Translations under genes and position numbers: made by a program
The notes under the pieces: generated by a model
Seen by the model: the letters and a program-made list of their open reading frames with translations, nothing else
What the model was told of the DNA's origin: nothing
Databases searched by the model: none
Origin: Haliea alexandrii
Lineage (GTDB): Bacteria; Pseudomonadota; Gammaproteobacteria; Pseudomonadales; Halieaceae
NCBI RefSeq assembly: GCF_003719295.1
Contig: NZ_RFLW01000002.1
Location: 672,763-736,762 of the forward strand
Direction: 5' to 3'
DNA: 64,000 nucleotides
Part shown: piece after piece, positions 57,234 through 64,000 of the stretch
Numbering within the stretch: the first letter of the stretch is position 1
Layout: each line of letters begins with the position of its first letter

Positions 57234-58304
57234 CTAGCGCAGCAGCGCCACCGATTTGATCTGCAACCAGAAGCGTTCGCCCGGCTGCACGCCAAGGCGC
57301 GCCTGTGACTGGCATGTGATGCGTGCCAGCAGCGATGTGCCGTTGGCGTCGAGTCTCACCAGTACATGCGCCGGTGAATCAGTGGGAGCCAGCTCGACAA
57401 CGTCCGCCTGCAGCAAATTGACGATACTGCTCTGTTCGTTGCGCTCGCGCGCAAGGCTGACGTCTCGCGCCAGTACCCGGCAGCGCAAGCGTGACCCTAC
57501 GGGCTCGGCACAGCGCGCTACCCAGAGGCTGCCGCCGGAAAATATCAACCGCGACAAATGCCATTGCGTGTCGTGTTCGGCCACCTCGGCCTCGATGACA
57601 ACACCGGCATCCTCTGCCGCGGCCAACGGCAGATCCAGACGGCTCAGCACGCTTTGCAGGGGGCCTTGCGCAACCACCCTGCCCGCCTCGAGCAAAACCA
57701 GATAGTCGGCCAACCGTGCGACCTCGCGCAGGCTGTGGGTCACGTAGAGCATGGGCACCGCGAAACGCGCGCGCAGCTGCTCGAGAAAGGGCAGTATCTC
57801 TGCCTTGCGCGCATCATCCAGCGCGGCCAGCGGCTCATCCAGCAGCAGCAGTTGCGGGCTGGCCAGCAGCGCGCGCGCCAGGGCAATGCGCTGTCTTTCG
57901 CCGCCGGAATAGGTCTGTGGGTAGCGCGCCAGCAACGGCTCTATATCCAGCAGCTGCACCACCTCGTCCCAGGCGATACGACGCTCATGTGCAGGTGTTC
58001 GCTGTAAACCATAGCGCAGGTTGCCAGCCCCGCTCAGGTGCGGAAACAGGCTGGCTTCCTGAAAAACCACACCCAGTGGACGACGGTGCACCGGTAGAAA
58101 CAGCCCCTCGCGCTGCCATTCGGCACCGTTGACCGAGAGCGCCCCCTGCGCCGCTCGCTCCAGCCCCGCCACGCAGCGCAGCAGCGTGCTCTTGCCCGCG
58201 CCAGAGGTGCCGTAGATAACCGTGACGCCCTCACCCGGCAGAGTCAGGTCCACATCAAGCCGGAATTCACCCTGTTGCAGGGCAAAGCGTGCCTCGATAG
58301 TCAC
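57234..58304 (-). CDS. modC: Molybdate ABC transporter, ATP-binding protein ModC
   Basis: ModC powers molybdate import. The 356-residue protein has Walker A GTSGAGKST at residues 32-40, the signature YSGGERQRIALARALL, Walker B LLLLDEPLAALDD, and a C-terminal TOBE/molbindin-like region (about residues 290-356, LLARITCQSQARLGVQPGER). The GTG at 58304 overlaps the modB stop by 4 nt (GTGA), so the longer frame extending into modB is a shadow. The gene order modA-modB-modC is canonical. Confidence 0.95.
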   Translation of the reverse strand: MTIEARFALQQGEFRLDVDLTLPGEGVTVIYGTSGAGKSTLLRCVAGLERAAQGALSVNGAEWQREGLFLPVHRRPLGVVFQEASLFPHLSGAGNLRYGLQRTPAHERRIAWDEVVQLLDIEPLLARYPQTYSGGERQRIALARALLASPQLLLLDEPLAALDDARKAEILPFLEQLRARFAVPMLYVTHSLREVARLADYLVLLEAGRVVAQGPLQSVLSRLDLPLAAAEDAGVVIEAEVAEHDTQWHLSRLIFSGGSLWVARCAEPVGSRLRCRVLARDVSLARERNEQSSIVNLLQADVVELAPTDSPAHVLVRLDANGTSLLARITCQSQARLGVQPGERFWLQIKSVALLR

Positions 58305-58987
58305 CCGGGCACCCCCACCGCCCGCGCCCGCCGGTTGACTGCGTAAACCAGCGTCAACAACGACAGGGACAACACAACCAGGGTGAGGGCAAGCGCGTGC
58401 GCAGCGCCGTAATCCAGCGATTCCACATGGTTGTAAATGGCGATTGACGCCACGCGCGTTTCGCCGGGAATGTTGCCGCCCAGCATGATGATGACGCCAA
58501 ATTCCCCGAGTGTATGCGCGAACGCCAGCACGGCGGCAGTAAGATAGCCGCGCCGCGCCAGGGGCAGCGCGATCGTTAAAAAACGGTCCAGCGGCGATGC
58601 ACGCAGGGTAGCCGCCACGTCGAACAGGCGCGCGCCCGTGGCCGCAAAGGCGTTCTGCAATGGCTGCACCACGAACGGCAGGGAGTACACCATCGAGCCG
58701 ACGACCAGACCGCTGAAACTGAACGCCAGGTGTCCTACGCCGATACGCTCCAGCGTGCCGCCCACGGCACCCTCCGGGCCCAGCAGGAGCAGCAGGTAAA
58801 ACCCGAGCACAGTCGGCGGCAACACCAATGGCAAGGTGACCAGTGCTTCGACCAGTACGCGCCCCCGTGCTGCGGTCTGCGAGAGCCACCAGGCCAGTGG
58901 TGTCGCCAACAGCAGCAACAGTACGGTACTGACCGCCGCCAGTTGCAGGGTTACCCACAGGGCGGTGAGGTCTTCCGCTGACAACAT
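58301..58987 (-). CDS. modB: Molybdate ABC transporter, permease ModB
   Basis: ModB is the membrane permease of the molybdate importer. The 228-residue protein has about five transmembrane helices and the EAA loop ATLRASPLDRFLTIALPLARRG (residue positions near 125-145), followed by GEFGVIIMLGGNIPGETRV. The ATG at 58987 is adjacent to a GTG one codon upstream; ribosome site is weak either way. It lies 15 nt after modA. Confidence 0.95.
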   Translation of the reverse strand: MLSAEDLTALWVTLQLAAVSTVLLLLLATPLAWWLSQTAARGRVLVEALVTLPLVLPPTVLGFYLLLLLGPEGAVGGTLERIGVGHLAFSFSGLVVGSMVYSLPFVVQPLQNAFAATGARLFDVAATLRASPLDRFLTIALPLARRGYLTAAVLAFAHTLGEFGVIIMLGGNIPGETRVASIAIYNHVESLDYGAAHALALTLVVLSLSLLTLVYAVNRRARAVGVPG

Positions 58988-59002
58988 CACAGGGACACCC
59001 GC

Positions 59003-59788
59003 TCAGCCACGGCGATAGCCAGCGGCTTCAATGATGGCAGCCGCCTCGGCATCGTCCTGCAGCCAGCGCAGAAAATGCCGCGCGGCTGCCGTGGCGCGGG
59101 CACCGCTGAGCAACACCGCGCCCTGCGTCAGAGGTGCGTACAGGTCCGCAGGCGGAATCCAGTATGACCCTGGTACACCCTGCGCTGTTTGCACCTGCGC
59201 CAGCGCCACGAACCCCAGCTCAATGGCACCGCTGGCGATCTGGCTGTGGGTTTGGGCAACGGAACTGCCGCGCACCAGCTGTCGACGTCGCTCCAGTGAA
59301 TCCCACAGGCCCAGCGCCTCCAGCACACTGCGCGCCGCAGCGCCATACGGCGCGGTGCGCGGCTCGGCGATCGCCAGATAGCGGAACTGCCCCTGACGCA
59401 GCACGCCGGCCTCGGCGTCGATCAGCGTGGCGTCCGGGCTCCACAGAACGGGTATGCCCTGCGCGTAGACAAACGCGGTGCCCGCCACCGCCATACCGTG
59501 TTCAACCAACTTGCGCGGACGCAGCTCATCGGCCGCCAGGAACACATCAAACGGCGCCGCGTTGGCGATCTGGCTATACAAGGCGCCGGTGGCACCGGGG
59601 CTGATGACCAACCGGTTGCCGGAAGCTTGCTCATACGGACCAGCAAGCGCCTCCAATGTGGCCGTGAAATTCGCGGCGACGGCCACCCGGATGTCCACGC
59701 CGGCCAGCGCCGGTTGGCCCCATAGCGCCAGCCAGCCCAGCAACAGCCACACCCTGCGGAGCGCACTTTGTTTCATCGCCAGATTCAT
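59003..59788 (-). CDS. modA: Molybdate ABC transporter, periplasmic substrate-binding protein ModA
   Basis: ModA captures molybdate or tungstate in the periplasm. The 261-residue precursor has a signal peptide (RRVWLLLGWLALWGQPALAG) and mature blocks VAVAANFTATLEAL, FDVFLAADELRP, and AEPRTAPYGAAARSVLEALG that form the oxyanion site. The ATG at 59788 is preferred, with 59776 possible; neither has a strong ribosome site. No ModE regulator gene or clear ModE operator is seen upstream. Confidence 0.95.
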   Translation of the reverse strand: MNLAMKQSALRRVWLLLGWLALWGQPALAGVDIRVAVAANFTATLEALAGPYEQASGNRLVISPGATGALYSQIANAAPFDVFLAADELRPRKLVEHGMAVAGTAFVYAQGIPVLWSPDATLIDAEAGVLRQGQFRYLAIAEPRTAPYGAAARSVLEALGLWDSLERRRQLVRGSSVAQTHSQIASGAIELGFVALAQVQTAQGVPGSYWIPPADLYAPLTQGAVLLSGARATAAARHFLRWLQDDAEAAAIIEAAGYRRG

Positions 59789-59931
59789 CGCGTGAGCATA
59801 CTTGCTGGAGGCGGCTGTGGGAATCAGGAGCAACCAATGGCGCATCGATAGCCGTGTATGACAGGCTGGACTGCACCTCCTACTCAGGGCATGATCCGTC
59901 GCTAACAACCATAACAGACAGGAGTAACACC

Positions 59932-60324
59932 ATGACGACATTGCTGCAGCTGGCGCTCTATATGACGGTACTCACGTTTGTCGCTATTCTGCTGGGCGCT
60001 ATTCTGCGCAACCGCGAGTGGACCGCCGAGGGCCTCAAGGCAGGCCTCAGCAACCGCGACCAGCTACCGGCTGCGACTGCACTCGGCGGGCGCGCGGAAC
60101 GCGCGGCAAACAATACCAAGGAAGGTTTCCTGCTCTTCGTACCGCTGGTGCTGGTTGCGCACGTGAGCGGCCATGGCGCAGAGGCTCTGCTCGGTGCACA
60201 GGTATTCTTCTGGTCCCGGGTGGTGTACCTGCCGGTCTATCTGGTCGGCATCACGTACCTGCGCAGCGCCATCTGGGGTGTCAGTGTTGCCGGCCTCGCC
60301 ATGATGCTGTTCGCTATGCTTTAA
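59932..60324 (+). CDS. MAPEG-family membrane protein
   Basis: This 130-residue integral membrane protein has four hydrophobic segments and the MAPEG-type cytoplasmic loop R-A-E-R-A-A-N-N (GRAERAANNTKEGF), the family's glutathione-related region. Its activity (glutathione transferase/peroxidase-like or other) is not known. AGGAG lies 8 nt upstream of the ATG. Its last 11 nt overlap the end of the convergent DUF2894 gene. Confidence 0.88.
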   Translation: MTTLLQLALYMTVLTFVAILLGAILRNREWTAEGLKAGLSNRDQLPAATALGGRAERAANNTKEGFLLFVPLVLVAHVSGHGAEALLGAQVFFWSRVVYLPVYLVGITYLRSAIWGVSVAGLAMMLFAML

Positions 60325-60790
60325 CCGACTTGCGTCGTCGGGCGGCACGGGCAGGGGCGGCCGGCCTGGTCGCCCCCTGCAGGCTGCACAACATTTCCGC
60401 GTGGCGCATCAGGCGCTCCACGTATTCCGGTGATACGGCCTGCAATCGCGCGACTGCCCGAATCACCAGCGTTTCCGGATTCAGTGGCCCCGGCGCCTCC
60501 GGCAATGCGGCGCGGAACTCCAGCAACAACTGGTCGATCACCTGCGAGGCATGCTGTTCGCGGTAACGGCGTGCCGCCACCAAACCATCCGCTTGCGGCT
60601 CAGCGACACTAACGCCATCTGCACCACCGAACGCAGCGAACTCCTGCCCCTGCAGCCTGGCTTCCAGCGCCAGCCGCGGCGAGGGAGGCGACAGCGCCTG
60701 CACGCCGCGTTCAAGCAAACCGGGCAGCGCGCGCAGGGCTTCTCTCCCGGGCCGCGCTGGCAGTCCACCCGTGATCTTTTCGCTGCTCAT
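60314..60790 (-). CDS. DUF2894 protein, last gene of the motor-like operon
   Basis: This 158-residue protein resembles the DUF2894 family, which occurs next to DUF802 and OmpA-like genes in other proteobacteria; the name is from memory. It has no signal or transmembrane segment. A central acidic/hydrophobic part (LNPETLVIRAVARLQAVSPE) is followed by a basic C-terminal tail (RAARRRKSVKA). Function is unknown. Its ATG overlaps the OmpA-like gene's stop by 4 nt (ATGA), a sign of coupled expression with the channel proteins. Confidence 0.8.
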   Translation of the reverse strand: MSSEKITGGLPARPGREALRALPGLLERGVQALSPPSPRLALEARLQGQEFAAFGGADGVSVAEPQADGLVAARRYREQHASQVIDQLLLEFRAALPEAPGPLNPETLVIRAVARLQAVSPEYVERLMRHAEMLCSLQGATRPAAPARAARRRKSVKA

Positions 60791-61434
60791 CCAGCGGGCT
60801 CCTGCTCCACGCGCGGCGTGCGGGGCACCGGGGCAATCTCCACCCGCCGGTTGCGCGCCCGGTTGTCGGCATCCGTGTTGGGCGCAATGGGCTGCTGCTC
60901 GGCAAACGCCGAGGCAAACACCAGTTCACGTGACAGCCCGGCGTCCACCAACGCCCGGGTCACGGTCAACGCGCGCTGCGCCGAGAGCTCCCAGTTGTCG
61001 GTGAACACCCGGTTATCCGCGTGAATGGGCAGGTCATCGGTAAAACCACTGACCATCAGCAGGTGGTCGCTCTGGCTCAGGTAGTGTGCCAGCGGTGCAG
61101 CGAGGCTGGCGATCAACGCCCGACCCTCAGGCTGCAACTCTGCGGAATTGAGGCCGAACAACAGTTGGCCACTGATGCCGATGCGGCCGTCGCGCAAGGT
61201 AATGCGGTTACTTGTCAGCGGGTCTGCCAGCGCCTGCTCCAGCTCCATGCGGCGCTGCTGCTCGGCCTCCCGCAGGGCCACTTCATCCTGCAGGGAGCGC
61301 GTCAGTTCAACCTGCAAGCCCAGCGTCCACACCAACAACAGCACGAAAATGCCCACCAGTGCCGCCATGAGGTCGCCGAACACCGCCCATACCGGGGTGT
61401 CCTGACCATCGCCTTCGTACTCGTATTCAGACAT
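60787..61434 (-). CDS. OmpA/MotB-domain protein, stator partner (ZorB-like)
   Basis: This 215-residue protein has a short cytoplasmic N-terminus, one transmembrane helix (DLMAALVGIFVLLLVWTLGL) carrying Asp21 in FGDLMAAL, a coiled linker (LQDEVALREAEQQRRMELEQ) and a C-terminal OmpA-like peptidoglycan-binding domain. That domain has FGLNSAELQPEG, the SGFTDDLPI turn, WELSAQRALTVTRALVDAG and NRARNRRVEI. The Asp in the helix corresponds to the ion-binding Asp of MotB and ZorB. It pairs with the channel protein encoded 17 nt upstream. Confidence 0.92.
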   Translation of the reverse strand: MSEYEYEGDGQDTPVWAVFGDLMAALVGIFVLLLVWTLGLQVELTRSLQDEVALREAEQQRRMELEQALADPLTSNRITLRDGRIGISGQLLFGLNSAELQPEGRALIASLAAPLAHYLSQSDHLLMVSGFTDDLPIHADNRVFTDNWELSAQRALTVTRALVDAGLSRELVFASAFAEQQPIAPNTDADNRARNRRVEIAPVPRTPRVEQEPAG

Positions 61435-61451
61435 TGCCCAAGCCTGCTGCG

Positions 61452-63299
61452 CTACACACTGCGGCTGATCTCTCGCAGCTGGTCCAGCAACTTCTGCTGT
61501 GCCAACGCGCTGTGATCAATCACCTCACGCGCCTGAGCCACATAGTAGGCGAGCTGTTCGTCACTGCGACCCGCCGCCTCCTCCATACCCTGCGCCAGTT
61601 GCTGCAGCGTGGTGGACAAGCCCTGGGCTACTGCGTCGAACTGCGCCACGGCGCTGCCCAGGGCATCGCCCAGTGCAGTCAATCCCTGCGCCCCCGCGGC
61701 GAACTGGCCGCCCACCTCGGCGAGCCGGTCGGCTTCCTGCCCTACAGTGGACGCAAACTGGAGGGCTGTGGCATCCAGCGCGGTGGCCGTCTGCTGCGCG
61801 AACGCCTCCAGGGTGCTGCGATACGCCGCTGAATCCTGCGCCAGCGCCCCTGCCGTCGCCTGCAGCCCGGCCACCAGCTCGCGCTGGGACTGGAGTAAGC
61901 TCTCATCCCGCTGCAATGCTTCGCTCGCCTCCTTACGCACCGTCGCAACCGCGCTAGCCAGCCCGGCCATGGTCGACTCCACTATCGGACGCAGCGTATC
62001 GACCGTCAGCTGTGCGTTGGTCGTCATGGCGGCGGTGAGTGCGTTCTGCACGCTGTCAGCCTGGGCCTCAAGAAGCGCCTGCTGCTGCTCGTTAAAGCGC
62101 GTGCGTTCCGCCAACCACTGCTGTTCCAGCCGCTCGCGGTGAGCGCTCAACTGCTCACCCACCTGTTGCAGCATCGCGGTGGCATTCGCAGCCTGCGTGT
62201 CGAGACTGCTACCGGCATCGCGCACCGTGGCTTCCAGCGCCAGCCGCAGACTGTCCTGCGCGGCTACCGCGGAGGCCTGTGACGCCACCAGGGCACGGGT
62301 ATCTCGCACGGACTGCGCAGCCTGCACGCGCACCTCGGCCAGCGCGGCGAGCTGATTGTCGACACCAGTGCGAACGGTCGTCTGCGTCGCCTCAGTTTGT
62401 GCCGCAATCGCCTGCAGGGTGTCGCGCAGTATTGGCGCCATGCTCTCACCGGCTTCACGCCCGCTGGCGGCAAAACTCTCACGCAATGACTGGCCCACAT
62501 GTTCGAACAAGCCCGTGTGCAACTCCACGAGCTTGTTCTGCAAACCTTCCTGCCCCTCGAGCATGCGCGCATGCAGGCTGTCGGTGGCGCTATCAACGCG
62601 GGTCAGCAGTGCCTCGACCTGTGCCAACAGCAGCGGCAACTGCCCGGTTTGCGTGCGGGCCTCGTGCAGCATCTGTCGACGGTAATGCAGCGGCCCCTGG
62701 CCGGGGAACAGCCGCGCGCCCTGCACATCGAGTTCGCGCACGACCGCAAGCCTCTGGCGCCTGGCCATGGCTGACAGCAAACCCAGCACGGCGGACGCCG
62801 CCACACCGCCCACCGAGGTACCGAACGCCATGCTCAGGCCCTTGATGGGCGCGGTCAGCCCGGCGCGGATGGCGGCGAGTTCAGTGCTGCCCTCCAATGC
62901 ACCCACAGCCCCCTGCAGGGCGATCATCATGCCAATAAACGTACCCAGCAGGCCCAGCATCACCAGCAGCCCCGTGAGGTACGGCGTCAGTAACGGCCCC
63001 GGAAGCGCAATCGGTTCACCCTGGATGCGCCGGGCAACGGCGCTGCGCAAGGCCGCCGGCAAGGTCGCCAGCCAGTGTTCAAATTCCGTGGCCTCGCTAT
63101 CACTGGCTTGCAGCGCCTGCTGCAAACGCTGCGTGTCGCGCTGGAACACCCAGAGTTCCAGCGCGCCCACCGTGTAGGCCAGCGCAATCACCAGCGTGAC
63201 GACCAGCGCCAACAGACTGCTGGCGGCAAAGCCCAACGCGAGCCAGGCGAGCAGCCCCGCACCGAGCAAAAACAGGCATCCTGCGAAAAAACGTATCAT
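61452..63299 (-). CDS. MotA/ExbB/ZorA-like channel protein with long coiled tail (DUF802)
   Basis: This 615-residue protein has two N-terminal transmembrane segments (about residues 3-24 and 27-52), a cytoplasmic loop, and two more (107-130 LTGLLVMLGLLGTFIGMMIA, and 157-178 AFGTSVGGVAASAVLGLLSA). The GTFIG and SxxGxxAS motifs are those of MotA/TolQ/ExbB/ZorA proteins. From about residue 190 to the end there is a very long Ala/Gln/Glu-rich tail with heptad-like repeats, which is typical of DUF802 and of ZorA tails. It starts in the DUF3348 stop (TGATG, 1-nt overlap). With the OmpA-like partner it should form an ion-driven stator/motor. Confidence 0.88.
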   Translation of the reverse strand: MIRFFAGCLFLLGAGLLAWLALGFAASSLLALVVTLVIALAYTVGALELWVFQRDTQRLQQALQASDSEATEFEHWLATLPAALRSAVARRIQGEPIALPGPLLTPYLTGLLVMLGLLGTFIGMMIALQGAVGALEGSTELAAIRAGLTAPIKGLSMAFGTSVGGVAASAVLGLLSAMARRQRLAVVRELDVQGARLFPGQGPLHYRRQMLHEARTQTGQLPLLLAQVEALLTRVDSATDSLHARMLEGQEGLQNKLVELHTGLFEHVGQSLRESFAASGREAGESMAPILRDTLQAIAAQTEATQTTVRTGVDNQLAALAEVRVQAAQSVRDTRALVASQASAVAAQDSLRLALEATVRDAGSSLDTQAANATAMLQQVGEQLSAHRERLEQQWLAERTRFNEQQQALLEAQADSVQNALTAAMTTNAQLTVDTLRPIVESTMAGLASAVATVRKEASEALQRDESLLQSQRELVAGLQATAGALAQDSAAYRSTLEAFAQQTATALDATALQFASTVGQEADRLAEVGGQFAAGAQGLTALGDALGSAVAQFDAVAQGLSTTLQQLAQGMEEAAGRSDEQLAYYVAQAREVIDHSALAQQKLLDQLREISRSV

Positions 63300-64000
63300 C
63301 AATTTCCTTCCCCATGCGCTGTACACGCCTCCACCAGGCCCAGCGCTGGCTGCAGACGCTGCTCCAATTCGGCCAGCAATAGTTCCCTGAGTTCGCTGAT
63401 CAGCAGATCCTGACTGCCCGCATCAGCGTCATTCGCCAATAGCGCCTCCCAGCGCGGCACCAGCAGCGGCGGCACGATGGCCAGCGCCGCCTCCCCCGCA
63501 CGCATCACATGGCGTTCAAGGGCTTCGTCCAGTGCGGCGAGGCCCGCCAGTGCAGGGCTTACCCGCCGCAGATACGCCCGCAGGTCGCGCCGCAGCGCCT
63601 GTATACGCAGCTCCATTTCACGCTGCCAGGCGGCGTGGAAACGCCGTAAACGCTCCGCGGCACTCAGGCCGTCCAGACTACTGGGCGCGTCAAACCTGGG
63701 CAGGGGAAGCAGCGCGCCCTCAGCGGCAGTGAAACTCCGGACTAACTCGCCCAACACACCACGCTGCACCGCCAGCAGTGTTTCCTCGCAACTGCCCAAC
63801 GTTTCCGCTGCACCACCCTGCCCCGGCACAGGCTTGACCGGCTCCTCGCGGGCTCCCCGCGCTCCCTGCGTCGACAGCACGTCAGCGAGCTCACTGGCGC
63901 TGTGCAAGTCCAGCGGCTGCCCGAGCCACGCCAGCAATTCCCCGCTGGGCACGACCGCCGCGTCAATCGGTACAATCGACAGGGCTCGCTGCAGGCGTGA
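63299..64000 (-). CDS. DUF3348-like protein, first visible gene of the motor-like operon (5' end outside window)
   Basis: The frame is open from the window edge at 64000 to its TGA at 63299, giving at least 233 residues. The first visible residues (SRLQRALSIV, then LLAWLGQPLDLHSASELADVL) match the beginning of DUF3348 proteins, so only about 20-30 residues should be missing. A variable Gly/Ala/Glu-rich linker is followed by a helical domain with RFHAAWQREMELRIQALRRDLR and EALLANDADAGSQD. There is no membrane segment. Function unknown; the association with DUF802 genes is family knowledge. Confidence 0.8.
   Translation of the reverse strand, partial: SRLQRALSIVPIDAAVVPSGELLAWLGQPLDLHSASELADVLSTQGARGAREEPVKPVPGQGGAAETLGSCEETLLAVQRGVLGELVRSFTAAEGALLPLPRFDAPSSLDGLSAAERLRRFHAAWQREMELRIQALRRDLRAYLRRVSPALAGLAALDEALERHVMRAGEAALAIVPPLLVPRWEALLANDADAGSQDLLISELRELLLAELEQRLQPALGLVEACTAHGEGN

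What the first reader, a model, noticed from the sequence alone, without database searches (positions are those of the whole stretch)
60314..64000. Four-gene ion-motor-like operon (DUF3348 / ZorA-like channel / ZorB-like stator / DUF2894)
The channel protein has a four-helix MotA/ExbB/ZorA arrangement followed by a coiled cytoplasmic tail of about 425 residues. Its partner has the membrane Asp (FGDLMAAL) and an OmpA peptidoglycan-binding domain. Long-tailed motors of this design are known from Zorya defence (ZorA/ZorB), where the tail is thought to carry a signal to effectors. Here the effector genes ZorC/ZorD/ZorE are absent from the visible operon, and two small soluble proteins of unknown function (DUF3348, DUF2894) flank the motor with 1-nt and 4-nt overlaps. 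This could be a distinct motor-driven system for envelope sensing, defence or motility-independent force. That the genes form one unit is seen in the sequence; the function is inference.
Basis: partly seen in the sequence, partly recalled or inferred. Interest (0 to 1): 0.82.

Follow-up and report, generated by a model that had tools for sequence, protein, structure and literature searches.

The report
Zorya type III long-tailed motor operon
These four genes are a marine bacterium's copy of Zorya type III, an already described ion-driven membrane motor that protected E. coli from phages in an earlier study; what stands out is that some bacterial genera keep it at a fixed chromosomal place like an ordinary gene, which makes its everyday role worth testing.

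Summary
In detail: DUF3348, a MotA/ExbB-like channel with a helical tail of about 415 residues, an OmpA/MotB-like stator with an invariant membrane Asp, and DUF2894 form one tight operon. PADLOC models identify all four as Zorya type III (E 6e-66, 3e-174, 3e-100, 1e-18). Payne et al. 2021 (PMC8565338) defined that type by this gene set and reported anti-phage activity in E. coli. It is a new member of a known kind; the two "unknown" flanking proteins are already named ZorF and ZorG.

Seen here: the four-gene unit is nearly invariant (40 of 41 loci; 79 of 81). ZorB and the end of the ZorA tail are conserved while ZorA length varies. No nuclease was recognised in either DUF protein. No match in 50,697 phage records; 27 of 72,556 plasmid records, all large. 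DUF3348 is near-universal in some genera (18/18, 8/8, 7/8, 5/6), at a shared site where checked (Haliea, 15 of 18 Zhongshania), patchy in another (30/81), and the deep ZorAB tree disagrees with rpoB. Whether type III is purely defence or also a resident envelope motor stays open.

The parts
63299..64000 (-). DUF3348 protein (ZorF in Payne et al. 2021; PADLOC-DB calls the same family ZorG3); gene continues 45 bases beyond the window, 248 aa in full (L002 10062-10808)
   Evidence: Pfam PF11828 4.3e-21; PADLOC PDLC00657 6.3e-66; full gene
61452..63299 (-). ZorA-type channel with long helical cytoplasmic tail, 615 aa from the ATG at 63299 (624 aa from an upstream GTG at 63326)
   Evidence: PADLOC ZorA3 3.3e-174; model with four channel helices plus all-helical tail; best Foldseek hit ZorA of 8vvn E 7.5e-4; start codon check
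60787..61434 (-). ZorB-type stator: one hydrophobic segment with Asp21 at its start, OmpA-like peptidoglycan-binding domain, 215 aa
   Evidence: PADLOC ZorB3 2.8e-100; NCBIfam PRK09040 1.4e-97; Pfam OmpA 5.2e-16; D21 in 40 of 40
60314..60790 (-). DUF2894 protein (ZorG in Payne et al. 2021; PADLOC-DB calls the same family ZorF3), 158 aa, conserved GPLN...SPxY motif near the C terminus
   Evidence: Pfam PF11445 6e-12; PADLOC PDLC00652 1.1e-18; alignment A4

Best explanation
The locus is a Zorya type III system of a Haliea species. ZorA and ZorB form an ion-driven (probably proton-driven, probably 5:2) inner-membrane motor anchored to peptidoglycan by ZorB; the long ZorA tail reaches into the cytoplasm. 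The most likely action: a phage-caused envelope or peptidoglycan disturbance opens or turns the motor, and the conserved end of the ZorA tail engages the two soluble partners (DUF3348 and DUF2894), which pass the signal on or block the phage. Shown here: the gene set, its linkage, the predicted channel fold, the membrane Asp, the conserved tail end. From the literature: anti-phage activity of another type III system in E. coli, and motor structure of types I and II. Inferred: stoichiometry, ion, trigger, and contact of the tail end with the DUF proteins. The effector step is open: no nuclease was recognised in either DUF protein (DUF3348 by sequence and fold; DUF2894 by sequence only, it was not folded).
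For: All four proteins match PADLOC type III models. Four-gene order kept in 40 of 41 loci; all four present in 79 of 81. ZorA model: the only PDB hit with E<=0.001 is type I ZorA 8vvn; by sequence profile the best PDB hit is also 8vvn, 3.8e-12 (most of the following hits are apolipoproteins and other helical proteins, likely composition). ZorB Asp21 40 of 40. ZorA row lengths 487-986 aa, yet residues 574-600 near the tail end are 0.76 conserved against 0.43 for residues 201-545. Published: type III from Stenotrophomonas nitritireducens lowered plaquing of at least one tested phage in E. coli (PMC8565338, passages); the ZorA tail, ZorB peptidoglycan binding and ion flow matter in types I/II (PMC11890865, abstract and passages).
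Against: No phage test for this copy. In Burkholderia cenocepacia no predicted defence gene (a Zorya III among the systems) changed fitness under CRISPRi during Bcep176 infection (PMC12584637, passages). Near-universal presence in some genera is unusual for a defence system. The model has no beta strand, while a recent survey ties an interface beta-sheet to Zorya-type A subunits (PMC12505986, figure-legend passages). In bits, ZorB scores better against NCBIfam MotB, MotD and TssL models than against PADLOC ZorB1/ZorB2 models. By VIA-align the channel is as close to ExbB as to ZorA (Z 12.8 and 12.0).
Confidence: 0.8

Rival explanations
1. A lineage-retained envelope motor: the complex works in uninfected cells (wall tension, outer-membrane or division upkeep, like Tol-Pal), and the phage protection seen in E. 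coli is a by-product of that activity or of over-expression.
For: DUF3348 in 18 of 18 Zhongshania species, 8 of 8 of genus g4, 7 of 8 of the own genus, 5 of 6 of g61; hsdR over its cut-off was in 7 of 18 of the same Zhongshania genomes. Collinear flanks in three Haliea relatives; 15 of 18 Zhongshania genomes share two or more flank families from a set I chose. No match in phage records and only large replicons among plasmid records. CRISPRi in Burkholderia showed no effect against one phage. The flanking-gene families shown are mostly metabolic or transport (25 of 132 families shown).
Against: Patchy in genus g27: 30 of 81, and only 58 of 293 genomes in the order. The ZorAB tree does not follow rpoB at depth (Mantel rho 0.07, 221 of 999 permutations as high), with copies in two further Halieaceae-group genera (G077; G221, G320) placed among the Zhongshania ones. 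Anti-phage activity was reported in E. coli.
Confidence: 0.25
2. Depolarising suicide channel: on infection ZorF/ZorG open the ZorAB pore and the cell dies by loss of membrane potential.
For: Payne et al. restate this older proposal for ZorAB and suggest ZorF/ZorG as regulators. No effector enzyme was recognised in the DUF proteins.
Against: For types I/II the paper turns from depolarisation to DNA damage by the effectors (PMC11890865; the passage with the voltage-dye result was cut off in what I saw). A pore alone would not need a long tail with a conserved end (inference).
Confidence: 0.12
3. A flagellar or surface-motility stator pair.
For: The ZorB peptidoglycan domain resembles MotB and MotD.
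Against: The MotB/MotD models listed score below their curated cut-offs (MotD 92.9 of 283 bits, MotB family 94.8 of 259); the channel carries a long tail; no motility family is among the 25 of 132 flanking families shown.
Confidence: 0.03

Closest known systems
Zorya type III (ZorA, ZorB, DUF3348, DUF2894; Payne et al. 2021, PMC8565338)
   Same: Same four families, DUFs flanking the motor pair; all four match PADLOC type III models.
   Different: Host lineage (Haliea); DUF2894 protein at the short end (158 aa; 107-341 aa as called). Activity of this copy untested.
Zorya types I and II (structures 8vvn, 8vvi, 8qyd)
   Same: MotA/ExbB-like channel with long helical tail, OmpA-type ZorB with membrane Asp.
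   Different: No ZorC/ZorD (type I) or ZorE nickase (type II) in the operon; no beta strand in the model.
ExbBD / TolQR / MotAB motors
   Same: Channel fold (VIA Z 12.8 to ExbB); peptidoglycan-binding domain like MotB.
   Different: Long tail with a conserved end and two dedicated soluble partners; scores below the curated cut-offs of the MotB-type models listed.

Membership tests
Zorya type III | ZorA of type III (MotA/ExbB-like channel with long tail) | tested here: met
   PADLOC ZorA3 3.3e-174; model with four channel helices and long helical tail
Zorya type III | ZorB with membrane Asp and OmpA-like peptidoglycan-binding domain | tested here: met
   PADLOC ZorB3 2.8e-100; OmpA 5.2e-16; Asp21 in 40 of 40
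Zorya type III | motor pair flanked by DUF3348 and DUF2894 genes | tested here: met
   conserved in 40 of 41 and 79 of 81 loci
Zorya type III | ZorC, ZorD, ZorE absent from the operon | tested here: met
   Neighbours are a MAPEG protein and an ABC transport operon on one side, a short-chain dehydrogenase on the other; no Zor model among the 6 PADLOC families hit at E<=1e-10 by 50 other window ORFs
Zorya type III | anti-phage activity | not testable with these tools
   reported for a Stenotrophomonas system in E. coli (passages)
Zorya type III | 5:2 motor stoichiometry (shown for types I/II) | not testable with these tools
   single-chain prediction only
Zorya types I/II | effector genes ZorCD or ZorE in the operon | tested here: not met
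Zorya types I/II | beta-sheet in the interface domain of the A subunit (PMC12505986, legend passages) | tested here: not met
   no strand in the AlphaFold2 model; blocks covering residues 61-110 have pLDDT 78-95; one single-chain model from 40 rows, so a weak test
Flagellar stator MotAB | match over the curated cut-off of a MotB/MotD model | tested here: not met
   MotD 92.9 of 283 bits, MotB family 94.8 of 259 bits (best 25 of 38 families shown)

The most novel reading that the evidence does not exclude
Zorya type III is not mainly a mobile defence system but a resident, genus-retained envelope motor with a cytoplasmic output arm: it monitors peptidoglycan or membrane tension all the time, and phage protection is one of its outputs, carried out without a nuclease of its own through DUF3348 and DUF2894.
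Probability: 0.22. Interest if true: 0.7.

Novelty: new member of a known kind. Interest (0 to 1): 0.35.

Why it matters
Types I and II of Zorya have solved structures and proposed effectors; in five searches of the held library and the passages I opened I saw no mechanistic study of type III. Two features make its mechanism testable: a ZorA tail end that stays conserved while total ZorA length about doubles, and two partner proteins in which no enzyme was recognised. Genera in which every sampled species has it give natural hosts where deletion can separate a defence role from a house-keeping role.

Tried and rejected
Distinct new system: rejected once PADLOC and Payne et al. matched all four genes.

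Mobile defence island: not supported. No relative confirmed in viral contigs (single-sequence query, close relatives only), none in phage records, plasmid hits in 27 of 72,556 records, all 366 kb or larger. Of 115 flanking proteins from 29 loci, no PADLOC family matched more than 3 at E<=1e-10; 97 families were hit, 25 shown, and a few flanks do carry defence-like genes (a reverse transcriptase and a Cas1-type hit). No control set of flanks was scanned.

Strictly vertical core gene: also not supported.

Fold of DUF3348: pLDDT 84 but all-helical; no Foldseek hit with E<=0.001; VIA Z up to 8.0 (a designed bundle, then Mx/dynamin stalks), within the range the tool warns is common for helical bundles. 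DUF2894 was not folded (both jobs used). Sequence profiles of both against the PDB gave nothing convincing.

Empty-site test in the own-genus genome without a DUF3348 match (G354): its best ModA relative is only 36% identical, so I could not find the site. Rfam on the window: none.

Naming differs between sources: the paper text calls DUF3348 ZorF and DUF2894 ZorG; PADLOC-DB labels them the other way round.
Full report
What is there. The operon is on the minus strand at the right edge of the window. The window is contig C5:672763-736762 of a 3.96 Mb genome; the DUF3348 gene starts 45 bases outside the window. The host is most likely a Haliea species: its channel protein is 95% identical to that of Haliea salexigens DSM 19537, and the own-genus genome G312 has a contig of the same length, 574,834 bases, as that record.

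Identity. Pfam finds DUF3348, OmpA and DUF2894. NCBIfam places the stator in PRK09040, a 'hypothetical protein' equivalog, and gives the channel only a weak ZorA_2 match (33.6 bits, cut-off 100). PADLOC matches all four to Zorya type III. Payne et al. 2021 (passages) named this arrangement, counted 6,401 cases (their text says pairs of 'zorBC'), and saw reduced plaquing of at least one tested phage in E. coli with a Stenotrophomonas nitritireducens system. Library searches for DUF802, 'Zorya type III', DUF3348/DUF2894, ZorF/ZorG with Zorya, and 'Zorya III' returned 1, 2, 2, 3 and 2 papers. Of PMC8565338, PMC11890865, PMC11953036, PMC12584637, PMC9148166 and PMC12505986 I saw passages only; PMC13064858 and PMC554113 only in listings. 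None of what I saw gives a type III mechanism. The Nature paper on Zorya structure was not held.

Conservation. Forty loci from the order plus the own locus, all chosen for a DUF3348 match: 41 of 41 have ZorA and ZorB; 40 have DUF2894, in the same order, mostly with short overlaps (gene starts are mechanical). Starting instead from ZorA, the best 80 of 476 confirmed relatives were kept; with the own locus, 76 of 81 pass an automatic order test, and three more (L129, L144, L150) hold all four genes with an over-long ZorA start call, giving 79 of 81; L117 is cut by a contig end and L146 has no detected DUF2894 (the script printed '76 of 80' because its denominator left out the own locus). The two sets overlap. 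Mean column identity is 25% for ZorA, 60% for ZorB, 28% for DUF3348 and 25% for DUF2894. In ZorA the channel (1-200) averages 0.66, the middle tail (201-545) 0.43, residues 574-600 near the end 0.76, while row lengths run from 487 to 986.

Structure. ZorA (40-row alignment): mean pLDDT 72.7, pTM 0.43, channel well predicted, tail all-helical, no strand. Best Foldseek hit is type I ZorA 8vvn, the only one with E<=0.001; by VIA-align ExbB and ZorA are tied. DUF3348: pLDDT 84, helical, no clear relative. Invariant DUF3348 residues are Q141, E226, R230, G236; invariant DUF2894 residues besides Met1 are G101, P102, N104, L108. These do not look like a nuclease centre (my reading).

Distribution. 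DUF3348 was matched in 58 of 293 genomes of the order (57 over cut-off), 37 of 120 of the family and 20 of 398 of the phylum (19 over cut-off, all in the same class). All five genera were picked because they already had hits, so these shares are not a random sample of genera. As a yardstick, hsdR over its cut-off was in 7 of 18 Zhongshania genomes, though 17 of 18 had some match; this is one yardstick only.

Place in the chromosome. Against L034, L035 and L037 (three Haliea relatives), 8, 10 and 5 flanking ORFs of the own locus have collinear counterparts at 48-99% identity; the large ABC ORF beside the operon has only a 26% match in L035, and the solute-binding protein has none in L037. In Zhongshania 15 of 18 genomes share two or more of the flank families that I chose, one shares one, two share none. 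In g27 I examined 22 loci of 30 positives: 13 share one neighbourhood on at least one side (10 next to a DnaJ-type gene, 8 near a GAPDH gene), 5 share a second site, 4 lie elsewhere (my reading of its rows; families). Sites in g4 and g61 were not compared. Across 121 loci no other gene is shared like the four: the largest non-Zor clusters occur in 28, 22 and 18 loci; those of 28 and 18 lie wholly on the opposite strand over the operon and look like shadow frames, and the one of 22 was not identified.

History. For 35 genomes with both sequences, ZorAB and rpoB distances (FastTree, no support values used) do not correlate (rho 0.066; 221 of 999 permutations as high), though 11 of 32 splits are shared, against a permutation mean of 0.2 and maximum of 2; the shared splits hold two to four genomes each. 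Seven of the 42 genomes asked for were left out: five had no rpoB match, G327 had a partial one and was not fetched, and G354 has no DUF3348 match. My reading: inherited within genera, exchanged between them.

Mobile elements. None in phage records or viral contigs (close relatives only); 27 of 72,556 plasmid records, 366 kb to 3.5 Mb, 20 typed non-mobilizable and 7 mobilizable, all under 60% identity.

Evidence against a defence role in a native host. In B. cenocepacia the first one or two genes of the Zorya I and III operons changed in transcription, but knock-down of the predicted defence genes had no fitness effect with phage Bcep176 (passages). The authors give reasons why that may be a false negative.

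Verdict. A complete new member of Zorya type III. Its membership is well supported; its mechanism beyond the motor is inference; its role outside phage defence is an open question that the distribution makes worth testing.

Noticed in passing
window 57234-59941: ABC operon next to the system: ATP-binding protein with TOBE domain, permease and a solute-binding protein, molybdate-type by my reading; kept beside the motor in L034, seen in part in L035 and L037.
   Followed up: partly
window 59854-60324: MAPEG-family membrane protein, convergent with the operon; its 3' end overlaps the DUF2894 3' end by 11 bases.
   Followed up: no
window 637-60324 (50 ORFs): The rest of the window looks metabolic in the 25 of 79 Pfam families shown (methylmalonyl-CoA mutase and MeaB, MoaC/MoaE, DUF3604 twice); six PADLOC models hit: PDC-S08 (1.2e-133), PDC-M37B twice, DolB, mad3 and an oxidoreductase.
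   Followed up: no
L054-L058, L190-L203: Zhongshania carries divergent type III versions at what looks like one chromosomal site in most species; the ZorAB of G077 and of G221/G320 from the window's family group with them in the tree, suggesting exchange between families.
   Followed up: partly
flanks of 29 loci (A5): One flanking protein each matches reverse transcriptase and Cas1-type models, so some copies may sit near other defence genes.
   Followed up: no
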